Source: Gammaproteobacteria bacterium HGW-Gammaproteobacteria-1
GTDB taxonomy: Bacteria > Pseudomonadota > Gammaproteobacteria > Thiohalomonadales > Thiohalomonadaceae
Reading direction: 5' to 3'
Assembly (NCBI GenBank): GCA_002840095.1
Contig: PGZL01000004.1
Span: 248,001 to 312,000, forward strand
Length of the DNA: 64,000 nt
The notes beneath the pieces were generated by a model. That model ran no database searches. It saw nothing but the letters and a program-made list of their open reading frames with translations, and was not told where the DNA came from. Shown piece after piece: positions 10,406 to 61,848 of the stretch. The position numbers and the translations under genes were made by a program. The first letter of the stretch is position 1. Each line of letters begins with the position of its first letter.

Positions 10406-10585
10406 AAGGCTTAAACGCAAAGACCGCGAAGAAATCCGAGAATAAAAAATCCAACGCAGAGGCGCAGAGAACAGCAGAGAGGATGCCCGCATGACTCTCT
10501 GCGATCTCCGCGTCTCCGTGTCTCTGCGTTGAGGATTTGAAGTTCTTTGCGCCCTTTGCGTTCTTCGCGTCTTTGCGTTGAAGGC
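10406..10585 (+). repeat. Element B: nested inverted repeats (CGCAAAG outside, CGCAGAG inside)
   Basis: The outer arms AACGCAAAGAC (from 10414) and CGTCTTTGCGTT (ending near 10580) enclose inner arms AACGCAGAGGCGCAGAG (from 10453) and CTCCGTGTCTCTGCGTT (ending near 10530). Both levels are arrays of 7-8 base units, so one repeat pair sits inside another. It fills the gap between the convergent genes sspB and the FAD dehydrogenase and may act as a bidirectional terminator. Confidence 0.75.
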
Positions 10586-15514: not shown

Positions 15515-16360
15515 GTGTCAATGAATGTGGGTACGCTTTACGTGGTGGCGACGCCTATCGGCAATCTTGGCGATCTGACGCCGCGGGCGCTGGAGGTGTT
15601 GCAGCGGGTGGCGCGCATCGCCGCCGAGGATACCCGCCACAGCGCCGGCCTGCTGCGCCACTTCGGCATCCACACGCCGCTGCTCGCCCTGCACGAGCAC
15701 AACGAGCGCGAGGCCAGCGTCGAGGTGATCCGCCGCCTGCAACAGGGGGAGGATATCGCCCTGATCTCCGATGCCGGAACACCGCTGATCAGCGACCCCG
15801 GCTTTCCGCTCACCCGCCTGGCCCACGAGGCCGGCATCCGGGTGGTGCCGCTGCCCGGCGCCAGCGCCCTGATCGCGGCCCTGTCCGCCGCCGGTCTGCC
15901 CACGGATCGCTTCGCCTTCGAGGGCTTTCTGCCCCCCAAGAGCGCCGCGCGCCGCCACGCCCTGGAGGCTCTGGCCGGTGAGCGCCGTACCCTGGCCTTT
16001 TATGAGGCGCCGCACCGCCTGCTGGAAACCCTGGAGGACATGACGGCGATCTTCGGCCCCGAACGCCTCGCCGTGCTGGCGCGGGAACTGACCAAGACCT
16101 TCGAGACCGTGCGCCGTGCGCCGCTGGGCGAACTGCTGGAGTTCGTGCGCGGTGACAGCGATCAGCAACGCGGCGAGGCGGTGCTGCTGCTGCACGGCGC
16201 GCCGCCGCCCGCGGCCGATGCCCTGGCGGACGAGCCACGCCGCGTCGCCGAACTGCTGGCCGCGGAACTGCCGGTGAAGCAGGCCGCGGCCCTGGCGGCG
16301 AAAATCACCGGCGCCAAGAAAAACCAGATCTATGACTATCTGGTCAAGGAAAGGCAGTGA
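15515..16360 (+). CDS. rsmI: 16S rRNA 2'-O-ribose methyltransferase RsmI
   Basis: SAM-dependent methyltransferase of 281 residues that methylates the ribose of C1402 in 16S rRNA, in the decoding centre. It has the tetrapyrrole-methylase fold with the family blocks TPIGNLGDLTPRALEVL, AAEDTRHSAGLL, LISDAGTPLISDPG and LPGASALIAALSAAGLP. The GTG at 15515 lies 7 bases after AGGGAG and is chosen; an ATG at 15521 would remove two residues. The stop codon TGA is the first part of the repeat element C. A position divergent from lpoA is conserved in gammaproteobacteria. Confidence 0.93.
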   Translation: MSMNVGTLYVVATPIGNLGDLTPRALEVLQRVARIAAEDTRHSAGLLRHFGIHTPLLALHEHNEREASVEVIRRLQQGEDIALISDAGTPLISDPGFPLTRLAHEAGIRVVPLPGASALIAALSAAGLPTDRFAFEGFLPPKSAARRHALEALAGERRTLAFYEAPHRLLETLEDMTAIFGPERLAVLARELTKTFETVRRAPLGELLEFVRGDSDQQRGEAVLLLHGAPPPAADALADEPRRVAELLAAELPVKQAAALAAKITGAKKNQIYDYLVKERQ

Positions 16361-16426
16361 CAAGTGGCAAGTGGCAAGTTGCAAGTAAAGGCAGGAATAA
16401 CTTGCAACTTGTCACTTGCAACTTGA
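16358..16426 (+). repeat. Element C: inverted heptad repeat arrays (CAAGTNN)
   Basis: The left arm at 16361-16388 has four units in register (CAAGTGG twice, CAAGTTG, CAAGTAA). The right arm at 16399-16426 has four on the opposite strand. Same repeat word as element A. It starts at the rsmI stop codon and ends 11 bases before the predicted 5' end of rnpB, so it occupies the place of the rnpB promoter. Confidence 0.8.
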
Positions 16427-16435
16427 CACTATGTT

Positions 16436-16803
16436 TCGGGAGTCGGCCGGACGATCGCGGCGCCGCAAGGCGCGGAGGAAAGTCCGGGCTCCGCAGGGCA
16501 GGGTGCCAGGTAACGCCTGGGCGGCGCGAGCCGACGGAAAGTGCCACAGAAAACATACCGCCTAAGCGCCTTCGGGCGCCGGCAAGGGTGAAAAGGTGCG
16601 GTAAGAGCGCACCGCGCGGCTGGCAACAGTCCGCGGCACGGTAAACCCCACCCGGAGCAAGACCAAATAGGGGAGCGCGCGGCCTTCGGGCCGCTAATGT
16701 GTGGCCCGCACAGTTCCCGGGTAGGTTGCTTGAGGTGTGCGGCGACGCACATCCCAGATGAATGGTCGTCCACGACAGAACCCGGCTTACAGGCCGGCTC
16801 CCA
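16436..16803 (+). ncRNA. rnpB: RNase P RNA (bacterial class A)
   Basis: Catalytic RNA that cuts the 5' leader from tRNA precursors. Helix P1 is formed by GGGAGTCGGCC at 16438 and GGCCGGCTCCC ending at 16802 (one G-U pair). The universally conserved blocks are present in order: GAGGAAAGTCCGGGCTCC near 16476, CAGGGTGCCAGGTAACGCC, AAGGGTGAAAAGGTGCGGTA, AGAGCGCACCGCGCGGCTGG, CCCACCCGGAGCAAGACCAA, and near the 3' end CCACGACAGAACCCGGCTTA. About 367 bases, normal for class A. Position between rsmI and mraZ is as in Pseudomonas. The exact ends are estimated from helix P1. Confidence 0.97.
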
Positions 16804-21965: not shown

Positions 21966-23343
21966 GCCTGCGTCCACCGCACAGCCGAACGAGGGCATCC
22001 GCCTGCGCCTGCCCCAGGCTGCGGCATGGCTGGCGGCCGAACGCAGCGGCGCCGATGTCGAGTTTCACGGCGTCAGCACCGATACCCGTACGCTGGCGCC
22101 CGGCGCGTTGTTCATCGCCCTGCGCGGCCCGCGCTTCGACGGCCATGACTATGTTGCCGAGGCCACGGCGCGCGGCGCCGCCGCCCTGCTGGTGGAACAC
22201 GCGGTGGACAGCGCGCTGCCGCAGCTCATCGTGCGTGACACGCGCCTGGCGATGGGGCGTCTTGCCGCGGCCTGGCGTCTGCACTGCAACACGCCGCTGG
22301 TGGCGATTACCGGCAGCAACGGCAAGACCACGGTGAAGGAAATGACCCGTGCCATCTTTGCCCAGACCGGCACCGTGCTCGCCACCGAAGGCAATCTGAA
22401 CAACGACATCGGCGTACCGCTCACCCTGCTGCGCCTGACGCCGCAGCATCGCCACGCCGTCATCGAAATGGGGGCGAACCATGCCGGCGAGATCGCCTAC
22501 CTGAGCGATCTGGCGCAACCCGACGCGGCGGTCATCACCAATGCCGGTCCGGCGCACCTGGCCGGTTTCGGCACGCTGGAAGGCGTGGCCCGCGCCAAGG
22601 GCGAAATCTATCGCGGCCTGCGCGAAAACGGAGTGGCGGTGATCAATGCCGACGACCAGTTTGCCGATCTGTGGCGCGGCATGGCCGGCACCCAGCGTCA
22701 GCTGTGCTTCGGCATGATGCCCGAGGCCATCGTCTCCGCGCGCTGGGAGGCTGCGGGCTGCGGCAGCCGTCTTTGGCTGCAGACGCCGGCCGGCGAGACG
22801 GAACTGCTGCTGCCGCTGCCGGGACAGCACAACGTCATGAATGCCCTGGCGGCCACCGCACTGGCGCTGGCCCTGGAGGTGAAACTCGACGCGGTACGCC
22901 GCGGCCTTGAAGGCATGCAGGGTGTGGCGGGACGACTGGCGCAGCGCAACGCCTTCAACGGCGCGCAACTCATCGACGACAGCTACAACGCCAACCCCGC
23001 CTCCATGCGCGCCGCCATCGACGTGCTCGCTGCGCGTCCGGCGCCGCGCGTCCTGGTGGTGGGCGACATGGGTGAACTGGGTGAGACCGCCGCGGAATTG
23101 CATCGCGCCGTGGGCGAATATGCCCGCGCCGCGGGTATCGAAGCGCTGTACGCCACCGGTCCGCTCAGCGCGGCGACGGCGGAAGGCTTTGGCAGCGGGG
23201 CAAAATATTTCGAGGATTGTGCGGCGCTGGCGACGGCGCTGCACCAGGTACTGACAGCGGACATGACGGTACTGGTCAAGGGGTCGCGCAGCGCCCGCAT
23301 GGAACGTGTGGTGGAAGCGTTGCAAAACGGAGGGCACGGCTGA
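21958..23343 (+). CDS. murF: UDP-MurNAc-pentapeptide synthetase MurF
   Basis: Mur ligase of 461 residues that adds D-Ala-D-Ala (made by Ddl) to the UDP-MurNAc-tripeptide and completes the cytoplasmic precursor. The ATP loop is [28 protein letters not shown] and [12 protein letters not shown] are family signatures. The ATG at 21958 lies eight bases inside murE. The stop shares one base with the mraY ATG (TGATG). Confidence 0.96.
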
Positions 23344-24425
23344 TGCTGCTCTATCTGACCGAGTATCTGACCCGGTTCTACACCGGCTTCAACGTGTTTC
23401 AGTACCTGACATTGCGCGCAATACTCGGTGTACTCACGGCGTTGCTGATTTCGCTGCTGCTGGGGCCGGCAATGATCCGCCGCCTCAGCCTGCTGCAAAT
23501 CGGCCAGCATGTACGCAGCGATGGTCCGCAGACCCATCTGTCCAAGGCCGGCACGCCGACCATGGGCGGCGCACTGATCCTGGTGGCCATCGTCATCAGC
23601 ACCCTGCTGTGGGCCGACCTGGACAACCGCTACATCTGGGTGGTGCTGAGCGTGACGCTGCTGTTCGGTTTCGTCGGTTGGCTCGACGATTACATCAAGC
23701 TGGTGAAGAAGCAGTCGCAGGGCCTGCGCGCCAAGCACAAGTATGTGCTGCAGTCGCTGTTCGGTTTCGGTGCGGCACTGGTTCTGTATTTCACCGCGCA
23801 GGTGCCGGCGGAACTGCAGCTCATCGTGCCGTTCTTCAAGAACGTGGCCCTGCCGCTGGGTGCGGGATTCATTCTGCTGACCTATCTGGTGATCGTCGGT
23901 TCCAGCAACGCGGTGAACCTCACCGACGGCCTGGACGGCCTCGCCATCCTGCCGACGGTAATGGTGGGCGGCGCCCTCGGCGTCTTCGCCTACGTTGCCG
24001 GCCACGTCCACTTCGCCGGCTATCTCGGCGTGCCCCATGTACCGGGGGCCGGTGAGGTGGTGGTGATTTGCGGCGCACTGGTGGGCGCCGGGCTCGGCTT
24101 TCTCTGGTTCAACACCTATCCGGCACAGGTGTTCATGGGCGACATCGGCGCACTGGCGCTGGGCGCCGCGCTGGGCACCATCGCCGTGGTGGTGCGGCAG
24201 GAGATCGTGCTGTTCGTCATGGGCGGCGTGTTCGTGATGGAGACCATTTCAGTGATTCTGCAGGTGGCGTCGTTCAAGCTCACCGGCCGGCGCATCTTCC
24301 GCATGGCGCCGCTGCATCATCACTTCGAGCTGAAGGGATGGCCCGAGCCGCGGGTCATTGTGCGTTTCTGGATCATCACTGTCATCCTGGTGCTGATCGG
24401 CCTGGCTTCGCTGAAGATCCGCTGA
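23343..24425 (+). CDS. mraY: Phospho-MurNAc-pentapeptide translocase MraY
   Basis: Integral membrane enzyme of 360 residues with about ten helices that transfers phospho-MurNAc-pentapeptide to undecaprenyl phosphate, giving lipid I. Signatures: [26 protein letters not shown] with the aspartate pair, [25 protein letters not shown] and [14 protein letters not shown] with the HHH motif. Length is identical to the E. coli protein. It is the last gene before the only large interruption in the cluster, the repeat element D. Confidence 0.97.
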
Positions 24426-24434
24426 CTACAAAAC

Positions 24435-24544
24435 CTGTCGCAGAGACGCAGAGACGCAGAGGAAATGAGAGTGATGAATGATCGAGTCTCGGATAGCGAA
24501 GCAACAGAGTTGGACAGCTCTGCGGCTCCGCGTCTCTGCGACAG
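24435..24544 (+). repeat. Element D: inverted repeat (CGCAGAGA) inside the dcw cluster
   Basis: The arms at 24435-24461 and 24518-24544 are 27 bases each with two mismatches when paired; they share CTGTCGCAGAGACGC. Units are CGCAGAGA-type repeats. The loop is 56 bases. It occupies nearly all of the 128-base gap between mraY and murD, where neighbouring genes elsewhere in the cluster mostly overlap. Confidence 0.85.
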
Positions 24545-24553
24545 TTTGTTTGA

Positions 24554-25900
24554 GTGAAAATTGACATGACGCTGATAGTTGGACTGGGCAAGACCGGACT
24601 CTCCGTGGCGCGCTTCCTGGCGCGGCGCGGGGAGCGGTTTGCCGTGGCCGACAGTCGCGTCAATCCGCCGGGGCTGGAGCAGCTGCGCAGCGAACGTCCC
24701 GGCGTGGAGGTGCATACCGGTCCGTTCGAAGCGGACCTGTTCCGCCGCCAGAGTCGTCTCATCGTCAGTCCGGGCGTGTCCTTGCAGGAACCGGCGCTGT
24801 GCGCCGCGCGCGATGCCGGGGTGGAAGTTTTCGGCGACGTGGAATTGTTCGCCCGCAGCGTCGATGCGCCGGTCATCGGCATCACCGGGTCCAACGGCAA
24901 GAGCACGGTGACCACCCTGCTGGGTGAGATGGCCCAGGCCGCCGGACTGGAAGTGCGGGTGGGCGGCAACCTGGGCACGCCGGCGCTGGAACTGCTGCTG
25001 GAGTCGGACGAGGCGGGCGCCCCGGATCTGTACGTGCTGGAGCTGTCCAGTTTCCAGCTGGAGACGGTGAACAGCCTCAACTGCCGTGCCGCCACCGTGC
25101 TCAACGTCAGCGCCGATCATTTCGATCGGCACGGCGGCATGGATGCCTATGCGGCGATCAAGCAGCGCATCTTCCGCGGTGATGGCGTGATGGTGTTGAA
25201 CGCCGACGATGCGCGAGTGGCAGCCATGGCGGAGCCGGGCCGCGACGTACGCCGCTTCACCCTGGCCGCACCGGCCGGTGACGCCGGCTATGGCGTACGG
25301 GAGTGCGACGGGCGCACCTGGTTGTGTCGCGGCACGGATGAAGTGATTGCCGCCGACGAGTTGAAGATCGCCGGTCGTCACAACTGGGCCAACGCACTGG
25401 CGGCCCTGGCGCTGGGTGATGCAGCCGGGCTCGACTGCATCGCCATGCTGTATGCGCTGCGCGACTTCGCCGGCCTGCCGCACCGCTGCCAGTGGGTGGC
25501 GGAAACCAGCGGCGTGAACTGGTACGACGATTCCAAGGGCACCAATGTGGGGTCCACCTTGGCGGCGCTGTCCGGCATGCCGGGCGGCAAGGTGGTGCTT
25601 ATCGCCGGTGGCGACGGCAAGGGGCAGGATTTCTCGCCCTTGCGCGCCGCGCTTGCCGCCCATGGTCGCGCCCTGGTGCTGATCGGCCGCGATGCGCCGC
25701 TCATCGAGCAGGCGGTGCAGGGCGTGGTGCCCGTGGTGCATGCCGGCACCAGCATGGAGCAGGCGGTGAGTGAATGCGCACGTCTGGCACAGCCGGGTGA
25801 TTGCGTGCTGCTGTCACCGGCCTGCGCCAGCTTCGACATGTTCGACAATTACATACATCGCGCCGAGGTTTTTATTGCGGCGGTGCGGAGGCTGGCATGA
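24554..25900 (+). CDS. murD: UDP-MurNAc-L-alanine:D-glutamate ligase MurD
   Basis: Mur ligase of 448 residues that adds D-glutamate to UDP-MurNAc-L-Ala. N-terminal Rossmann-like domain (LIVGLGKTGLSVARFL), ATP loop GITGSNGKSTVTT, ELSSFQLET and HRCQWV-type C-terminal signatures, YDDSKGTN. The start is either the GTG at 24554 or the ATG at 24566; neither has a good Shine-Dalgarno, because the preceding sequence is the end of repeat element D. The stop overlaps ftsW in ATGA. Confidence 0.95.
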   Translation: MKIDMTLIVGLGKTGLSVARFLARRGERFAVADSRVNPPGLEQLRSERPGVEVHTGPFEADLFRRQSRLIVSPGVSLQEPALCAARDAGVEVFGDVELFARSVDAPVIGITGSNGKSTVTTLLGEMAQAAGLEVRVGGNLGTPALELLLESDEAGAPDLYVLELSSFQLETVNSLNCRAATVLNVSADHFDRHGGMDAYAAIKQRIFRGDGVMVLNADDARVAAMAEPGRDVRRFTLAAPAGDAGYGVRECDGRTWLCRGTDEVIAADELKIAGRHNWANALAALALGDAAGLDCIAMLYALRDFAGLPHRCQWVAETSGVNWYDDSKGTNVGSTLAALSGMPGGKVVLIAGGDGKGQDFSPLRAALAAHGRALVLIGRDAPLIEQAVQGVVPVVHAGTSMEQAVSECARLAQPGDCVLLSPACASFDMFDNYIHRAEVFIAAVRRLA

Positions 25901-54154: not shown

Positions 54155-54343
54155 CTGCCGCAGAGACGCGGAGACGCAGAGTGGATGAGTGCGTTGTGGG
54201 ATGCCACTGGGCACGATGCCATCAGCCCTGCCGGTAAGCCGGGATCATTGATGTCGCATTCTGAATCTCCGCGTCTGGGAAATATGTTCCAGACATTTCC
54301 AACCGACTACATCCATGTAGTCGTCTGCGTCTCTGCGGCAAAG
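54155..54343 (+). repeat. Element F: inverted repeat (CGCAGAGA) with conserved core
   Basis: Left arm CTGCCGCAGAGACGCGGAG from 54155 and right arm CTGCGTCTCTGCGGC ending near 54339 share 13 paired bases. The loop carries CTCCGCGTCT, a second partner of the left arm, and a core at 54277-54324 that recurs in element G. Inside the core GACTACAT-CC-ATGTAGTC forms its own hairpin (54305-54322). It fills the 211-base gap between sucD and nadE. Confidence 0.75.
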
Positions 54344-61731: not shown

Positions 61732-61848
61732 CGCAGAGACGCGGAGGACGCAGAGATGTTGATGCGCAAGATGGGCCTCCCTGAACTCTGCAACCGGGAG
61801 ATATGTTTCAGGCCTTTCCAACTGGCCGCATCCTTGTGTCGTCGGCGC
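61729..61848 (+). repeat. Element G: CGCAGAGA array with the core found in element F
   Basis: CTGACGCAGAGACGCGGAG at 61728 and a further unit ACGCAGAG, then a short spacer and a core at 61796-61843 that matches the core of element F in about three quarters of positions (GGGAGATATGTT, TTTCCAAC, CATCC, TGTCGTC). The inverted right arm is missing, so this is a shortened copy. It fills the gap between def and the acyltransferase gene. Confidence 0.65.

What the first reader, a model, noticed from the sequence alone, without database searches (positions are those of the whole stretch)
24435..24544. A repeat hairpin splits the dcw cluster between mraY and murD
From mraZ to ftsQ most gene junctions overlap by 1, 4 or 8 bases. 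The mraY-murD junction instead has 128 bases, almost all of it element D with two 27-base arms (two mismatches) around a 56-base loop. An insertion here should be costly for coupled translation, and murD has no Shine-Dalgarno and a possible GTG start as a result. The element may have been tolerated because its hairpin brings the murD start close to the mraY stop, or it may tune murD expression.
Basis: partly seen in the sequence, partly recalled or inferred. Interest (0 to 1): 0.55.

Follow-up and report, generated by a model that had tools for sequence, protein, structure and literature searches.

The report
Hairpin repeat between two cell-wall genes
A high-copy hairpin repeat has landed between two cell-wall genes that directly abut in close relatives, so the second gene probably now starts translation on its own; the repeat belongs to a hairpin family whose letters I found in no searched paper, and that family carries its own smaller passenger hairpin.

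Summary
Window 24432-24547 is a strong hairpin (30-nt arms, 90% complementary, 56-nt loop; RNA fold z -5.4) that fills the mraY-murD junction. In two of four same-genus genomes (G002, G004) that junction is only 1-2 nt. G001 also carries a GCAGAG hairpin there; the outgroup G003 has 52 nt of non-repeat sequence. The hairpin belongs to an interspersed family (369 motif hits in the own genome; reversed-pattern control 117). Of 148 orthologous junctions, 13 are occupied in G000, 18 in G001, 12 in both (P=1.6e-12). With a matching murD leader (9 of 14 bases), this suggests one old insertion whose sequence was later rewritten. The family resembles MITEs and REPINs but fails tests of each: no target-duplication excess, arms not self-palindromic, no motif at three RAYT-like genes. 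Most likely it is a tolerated passenger that broke mraY-murD translational coupling; murD keeps its ancestral ATG (24566). The missing Shine-Dalgarno is not a result of the insertion: relatives without it lack one too. Regulation or RNase III processing is possible but untested. Unexpectedly, 20 of 20 examined copies (of 36 found) of a 48-nt double hairpin sit at one place inside the GCAGAG right arm.

The parts
23343..24425 (+). mraY
   Evidence: ORF; NCBIfam TIGR00445, 437 bits
24432..24461 (+). left arm of element D, three GCAGAG octamer units
   Evidence: the repeat finder, 90% complementary to the right arm; not self-palindromic
24462..24517 (+). 56-nt loop of element D
   Evidence: weakly similar to the G001 loop
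24518..24547 (+). right arm of element D
24548..24565 (+). murD leader between stem and ATG; 9 of 14 ATG-anchored bases shared with G001
24566..25900 (+). murD from the conserved ATG; GTG 24554 is the less likely start
   Evidence: TIGR01087, 410 bits
10455..10577 (.). sister element A, nested in a CGCAAAGA-unit hairpin; site also occupied in G001 and G004
54159..54337 (.). sister element E between sucD and an NAD+ synthase gene; left half clearly homologous in G001; carries the nested 48-nt element
54276..54323 (+). 48-nt double hairpin nested in the right arm of element E
61732..61746 (+). sister element F (left arm kept, right arm not recognised) between peptide deformylase and an acyltransferase-like gene

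Best explanation
Element D is one copy of a high-copy, non-coding hairpin repeat (arms of tandem GCAGAG octamers around a variable loop) that entered the mraY-murD junction before the lineages of G000 and G001 parted. Shown: the junction is occupied in G000 and G001 and only 1-2 nt long in G002 and G004; the motif is high-copy; the stem is strong; the murD ATG is unchanged. Inferred: it is a tolerated passenger. It ended stop-to-start coupling of mraY and murD, so murD is now initiated separately at ATG 24566 from an 18-nt leader outside the stem. The operon transcript reads through. In the mRNA the roughly 30-bp stem would act as a local barrier or RNase III site, as hairpin MITEs do elsewhere. 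The copying enzyme is unknown.
For: Short junctions in G002 and G004. Whole-genome motif counts. Of 148 compared junctions 13 are occupied in G000, 18 in G001, 12 in both, Fisher P=1.6e-12. ATG-anchored leader match 9/14 (0 of 164 control upstream 14-mers; 0.14% of random 14-mers). MurD N-terminus intact and conserved. Fold. Eight other dcw junctions overlap or abut. RNase III precedent for Correia elements in print (PMC2649163 passages; PMC10969869 passages).
Against: D in G000 and G001 are not each other's best matches (orthologue rank 4 of 36) and the loops are only weakly similar (112 of 2000 shuffles reach the score), so two insertions are not excluded. One further G000 element (148968 of the joined region), outside the 148 junctions, is absent from G001. 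No target-site duplication excess (5 of 32 against 22.7% in control). No mobilising enzyme found. The arms are better paired than neutral decay predicts in both lineages (simulated P 0.017-0.118 for the G000 score, 0.004-0.053 for the G001 score), which a purely passive passenger does not explain. Whether G002/G004 never had D or lost it is open: the order of G000 and G001 in the tree is poorly supported (SH-aLRT/bootstrap 84.4/81 by DNA, 61.8/65 by protein). No RNA data.
Confidence: 0.6

Rival explanations
1. D is a selected RNA hairpin that tunes murD, for example by RNase III cleavage, mRNA end protection, or by keeping the murD start near the mraY stop.
For: Stem kept well paired in both G000 and G001 while loops diverged; strong fold; geometry 6 nt + 18 nt outside the stem.
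Against: G002 and G004 do without it. Good pairing is a trait of the whole family (median arm identity 0.90 in 32 copies) and could come from arm homogenisation. G002 junctions orthologous to occupied ones carry other hairpins only slightly more often (score >=14: 4 of 19 against 10 of 129, P=0.08; >=12: P=0.14; >=10: P=0.07).
Confidence: 0.2
2. Two independent insertions of the family into the same hospitable junction in G000 and G001.
For: D(G001) is only the 4th best match of D(G000) among 36 elements. Arm termini belong to different subtypes (CTGTCGC against CCAACGC). At another shared junction (208604 of the joined region) G000 and G001 carry hairpins of different units. At four of 12 shared sites the orthologue ranks 11 or worse.
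Against: 12 of 13 G000-occupied junctions also occupied in G001, of 148. Leader match 9/14. At four of 12 shared sites the orthologue is the best match, e.g. 137 against 38.5 for the next.
Confidence: 0.2
3. D is an intrinsic terminator or attenuator between mraY and murD.
For: The G000 stem is followed by TTTGTTT.
Against: The G001 stem is followed by GGTATTGGAAG, with no T-run. The terminator scan lists nothing there, although its 3-8 nt loop limit would miss D. Termination would cut off essential downstream dcw genes unless a new promoter exists; the sigma-70-type scan of 23300-25900 found one site, on the - strand.
Confidence: 0.06
4. D is a REP doublet (REPIN) moved by a RAYT.
For: Inverted doublet with variable spacer, intergenic, high copy, as REPINs are (PMC3116915 passages).
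Against: Single arms are not palindromic (z +0.5 and +0.4). The three Y1_Tnp genes found in G000 have no GCAGAG motif (2 substitutions allowed) in their 3.3-kb loci; by eye they are flanked by other repeats beginning GTAGG. No GTAG tag at the arms of D.
Confidence: 0.08

Closest known systems
Bacterial MITEs with long inverted repeats (ERIC/YPAL, NEMIS/Correia)
   Same: Non-coding, short, high copy, mostly intergenic, one long RNA hairpin; Correia hairpins are RNase III sites in print (PMC2649163 passages).
   Different: No target-site duplication excess; arms built of tandem octamers; loops often unlike between copies and between bacterial families; no parent transposon seen.
REPINs / GTAG- and CGTC-tagged REPs (PMC3116915 and PMC3733652, passages)
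   Same: Inverted pair with conserved ends and variable spacer, mainly between codirectional or convergent genes, patchy taxonomic spread.
   Different: Single arm not a palindrome; no GTAG tag; motif absent at RAYT-like genes. CGTC REPs also lack a transposase but have 8-9 bp stems.
Intrastrand triplex repeats (PMC4666352)
   Same: Intergenic, high-copy, structure-forming repeats in many bacteria.
   Different: Those need a third strand shared with a homopurine stretch; GCAGAGAC arms are not homopurine (read by eye, no triplex search run). Seen: abstract and passages.

Membership tests
MITE | short, non-coding, terminal inverted repeats | tested here: met
   32 of 36 paired clusters gave an inverted repeat (four had no 8-nt seed); arm median 26 nt, loop median 40 nt
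MITE | target-site duplication | tested here: not met
   flank direct repeat >=4 nt in 5 of 32 against 22.7% of controls; published to wane with age
MITE | inverted repeats shared with a transposase-bearing element | tested here: inconclusive
   none apparent in the list of 40 clusters in 410 kb, but no dedicated scan and no whole-genome scan; no match in plasmid and phage records at E 1e-3
MITE | mobility: filled and empty orthologous sites | tested here: met
   filled in G000/G001, 1-2 nt in G002/G004; of 148 junctions 13, 18 and 1 occupied in G000, G001, G002; gain or loss not decided by this
REP/REPIN | each unit a small palindrome | tested here: not met
   D's arms fold no better than shuffles
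REP/REPIN | GTAG or CGTC tag at one end, unpaired | tested here: not met
   read by eye from D and sister arms
REP/REPIN | cognate RAYT gene flanked by the repeat | tested here: not met
   3 of 3 Y1_Tnp loci lack the motif within about 1.5 kb each side
Intrinsic terminator | G+C-rich stem followed by T-run, conserved | tested here: not met
   TTTGTTT in G000 only, none in G001; loop 56 nt
Known RNA family | reaches an Rfam gathering score | tested here: not met
   no match above gathering at D; four sub-threshold microRNA-precursor models (best 33.3 bits, gathering 58), taken as chance matches to a long hairpin

The most novel reading that the evidence does not exclude
The GCAGAG hairpins are a class of site-persistent, sequence-fluid elements: the junction stays occupied over long times while arms and loop are rewritten (by conversion between copies or re-invasion of the same site). 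They host a second-order, site-specific hairpin element that lives only inside their right arm.
Probability: 0.3. Interest if true: 0.62.

Novelty: new variant of a known kind. Interest (0 to 1): 0.42.

Why it matters
It is a natural experiment on translational coupling in an essential operon: related genomes with and without a 140-nt hairpin between mraY and murD, with the same murD start. The family it belongs to offers empty and filled sites for studying how structured repeats are tolerated between genes, and how they persist while their sequence changes. Its passenger hairpin points to an unidentified, very site-specific DNA-moving activity.

Tried and rejected
Independent insertion as main reading: lowered by 12 of 13 co-occupancy and the leader match, not excluded. 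RAYT link: not supported for the three Y1 genes found. Target-site duplication: TGAC flanks D, but duplicated flanks are no commoner than control, and in coupled junctions both stop and start must survive anyway. Terminator: see rivals. Plasmid or phage carriage: no match in either collection at E 1e-3; an exact 19-mer of the motif is in 30 stretches of viral contigs, not followed. Literature by letters: 0 papers with CGCAGAGACGCAGAG, CTCTGCGTCTCTGCG or AACGCAAAGACGCAAAG; six further strings gave two papers, on Giardia kinases and on wheat, by title unrelated. Word searches gave general repeat papers; none names this family in the listings. Only abstracts or passages were seen, of PMC4666352, PMC4853749, PMC3733652, PMC3116915, PMC10969869, PMC2267715 and PMC2649163. 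A first ranking of orthologous copies paired one G000 element (173629) with the wrong G001 element and left out 179027; one search replaces it, D's rank is unchanged. Not used: taxonomy look-up, E. coli collection, structure prediction.

Full report
The element. The arms lie at 24432-24461 and 24518-24547, 30 nt and 90% complementary, with 56 nt between them. The RNA folds 5.4 standard deviations below shuffles. mraY ends at 24425. murD is read from ATG 24566, or from GTG 24554 in the same frame. NCBIfam names both genes with high scores. The eight other junctions looked at, from mraZ to ftsW, overlap or abut.

The empty junction. Five genomes of the genus are held, including the own one. In G004 and G002 mraY and murD are separated by 2 nt and 1 nt. 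In G001 the gap to the ATG is 142 nt and holds another GCAGAG hairpin. In the outgroup G003 the 52 nt are an in-frame, non-repeat stretch. In the wider family a murD of 54% identity or more was found in 18 of 20 genomes, and in several the likely start lies on or next to the mraY stop. MurD's first residues, MTLI[VI]GLGKTG, and its ATG are the same in G000, G001, G002 and G004, so the ATG is the likely start. G002 and G004 have weaker anti-Shine-Dalgarno pairing (-1.6 kcal/mol) than G000 (-4.4) or G001 (-8.8), against a random median of -4.7. The lack of a ribosome site therefore is not a result of the element.

The family. CGCAGAGACGCAGAG with at most one mismatch occurs 191+178 times in the own genome, backwards control 57+60; the control is partly the same tandem repeat in another phase and so too strict. 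With CGCAGAGNCGCAGAG, one mismatch, the counts are 587 in G001 (control 166), 160 in G004 (53), 4 in G002 (0) and 2 in G003 (1). Over a sample of the class, 60 of 274 genomes have any match to the first pattern, and 14 of 274, the own one included, have ten or more. I fetched 15 stretches from nine other genomes of that sample, chosen partly because hits on both strands lay close. In 12 of 15, from six genomes, the best inverted repeat is a GCAGAG hairpin with 12-29 nt arms and a loop of other sequence; three stretches gave none or another hairpin. In 410 kb of G000 and G001, 36 of 40 motif clusters hold both arms (the motif there also admits CGCAAAG units). Of these 36, 32 gave a measurable inverted repeat: arms of median 26 nt at 0.90 identity, loops of 6-151 nt. 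Two of the 40 lie inside a called reading frame, but gene calls are incomplete, 68% of the G000 stretch.

History of the site. Aligning G000, G001 and G002 gave 148 comparable junctions. The motif is in 13 (G000), 18 (G001), 12 in both (Fisher P=1.6e-12) and 1 in G002, that one of CGCAAAG units. One more G000 element, outside these 148, is absent from G001. Occupied junctions are 16 codirectional, 2 convergent and 1 divergent of 19; all 148 are 110, 18 and 20. At the 12 shared sites the orthologue was the best match of 36 in four, second in two, third in one, fourth for D, and 11th, 22nd, 31st and 33rd in four. Fourfold sites differ by 28.6% between G000 and G001. D's loops score 11, reached by 112 of 2000 shuffles and just under the 5% point (11.5) of a neutral simulation. 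The 14 bases before murD's ATG match at 9, a level that none of 164 control sites reaches. I read this as one old insertion whose body was rewritten; two insertions remain possible. The tree supports G002+G004 (bootstrap 100 by DNA, 98 by protein) but not the order of G000 and G001 (81 and 65), so G002/G004 may have lost D or never had it. At one junction G002 keeps what looks like the end of a lost element (GCGTTGCAGGTTTTTGA), which fits loss there; that is an impression from one site.

Mechanism. Shown: occupied and near-empty orthologous junctions, intact coding sequences, strong stem, high-copy motif. Inferred: with 6 nt from stop to stem and 18 nt from stem to ATG, a ribosome that finishes mraY meets a stem of about 30 bp, so coupled restart is unlikely and murD is initiated separately. 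I take the stem to be long enough for RNase III (recalled), whose action on Correia hairpins is in print (PMC2649163 passages; PMC10969869 passages). In simulations from perfect 30-42 nt arms, the observed pairing is reached in 1.7-11.8% (G000) and 0.4-5.3% (G001) of runs. Something (selection, arm correction or overwriting) therefore seems to keep the stem; this counts against the purely passive reading and is why a regulatory role keeps 0.2.

Comparison with known kinds. It works like a hairpin MITE, but the target-duplication test is not met and no parent element was seen. It resembles a REPIN, but D's single arms are not palindromes and none of the three Y1 transposase loci contains the motif. 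Those loci carry other repeats beginning with GTAGG.

A passenger within the repeat. A 48-nt double hairpin (fold z -4.6) was sought by a 40-base pattern with up to three mismatches. It is present 18 times in G000, 7 in G001, 11 in G004 and not in G002 or G003, which nearly lack the GCAGAG family. I examined 20 of these 36 (all 18 of G000, 2 of 11 of G004). All 20 lie at the same place and in the same orientation inside what reads as a GCAGAG right arm, typically between GCGTC and TCTGCG with single-base variants. The flank tests met by 20 of 20 are met by 22% (left) and 5% (right) of control positions. At two orthologous elements one genome has it and the other has the uninterrupted arm (sites 179027 and 201600 of the joined G000 region); element E looks like a third case. 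This is a site-specific second-order element, or a removable module of the family. D does not carry it.

Noticed in passing
window 54276-54323; L296-L315: 48-nt double hairpin; 20 of 20 examined copies (36 found) lie at one spot inside a GCAGAG right arm, and no copy was found in the two genomes that nearly lack GCAGAG repeats.
   Followed up: partly
G002 (e.g. orthologue of window 10455): G002, nearly free of GCAGAG repeats, has a private palindrome GGAAGCTCTGAA-N4-TTCAGAGCTTCC at 140 places; G000 has 2, G004 3, G001 and G003 none. It sits at two junctions where G000 has GCAGAG hairpins.
   Followed up: partly
window 16360-16427: Hairpin of another unit family (AAGTGGC / CAAGTTG repeats) overlapping the stop codon of the ORF at 15515-16360, just before the RNase P RNA gene at 16439.
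   Followed up: no
window 10414-10580: A GCAGAG hairpin nested inside a hairpin of CGCAAAGA units.
   Followed up: no
L179, L180, L181: Three Y1 (RAYT-like) transposase genes of G000, each flanked by its own distinct repeat beginning GTAGG.
   Followed up: no
G000 C66:328469 and G001 C10:120457: One orthologous GCAGAG element is far more alike between G000 and G001, loop included, than any other pair (score 137, next best match of that copy 38.5), suggesting constraint or recent exchange.
   Followed up: no
G002 orthologue of window 61732: The same junction holds a hairpin built of CGAGGGA-like units in G002 where G000 and G001 have GCAGAG units.
   Followed up: no
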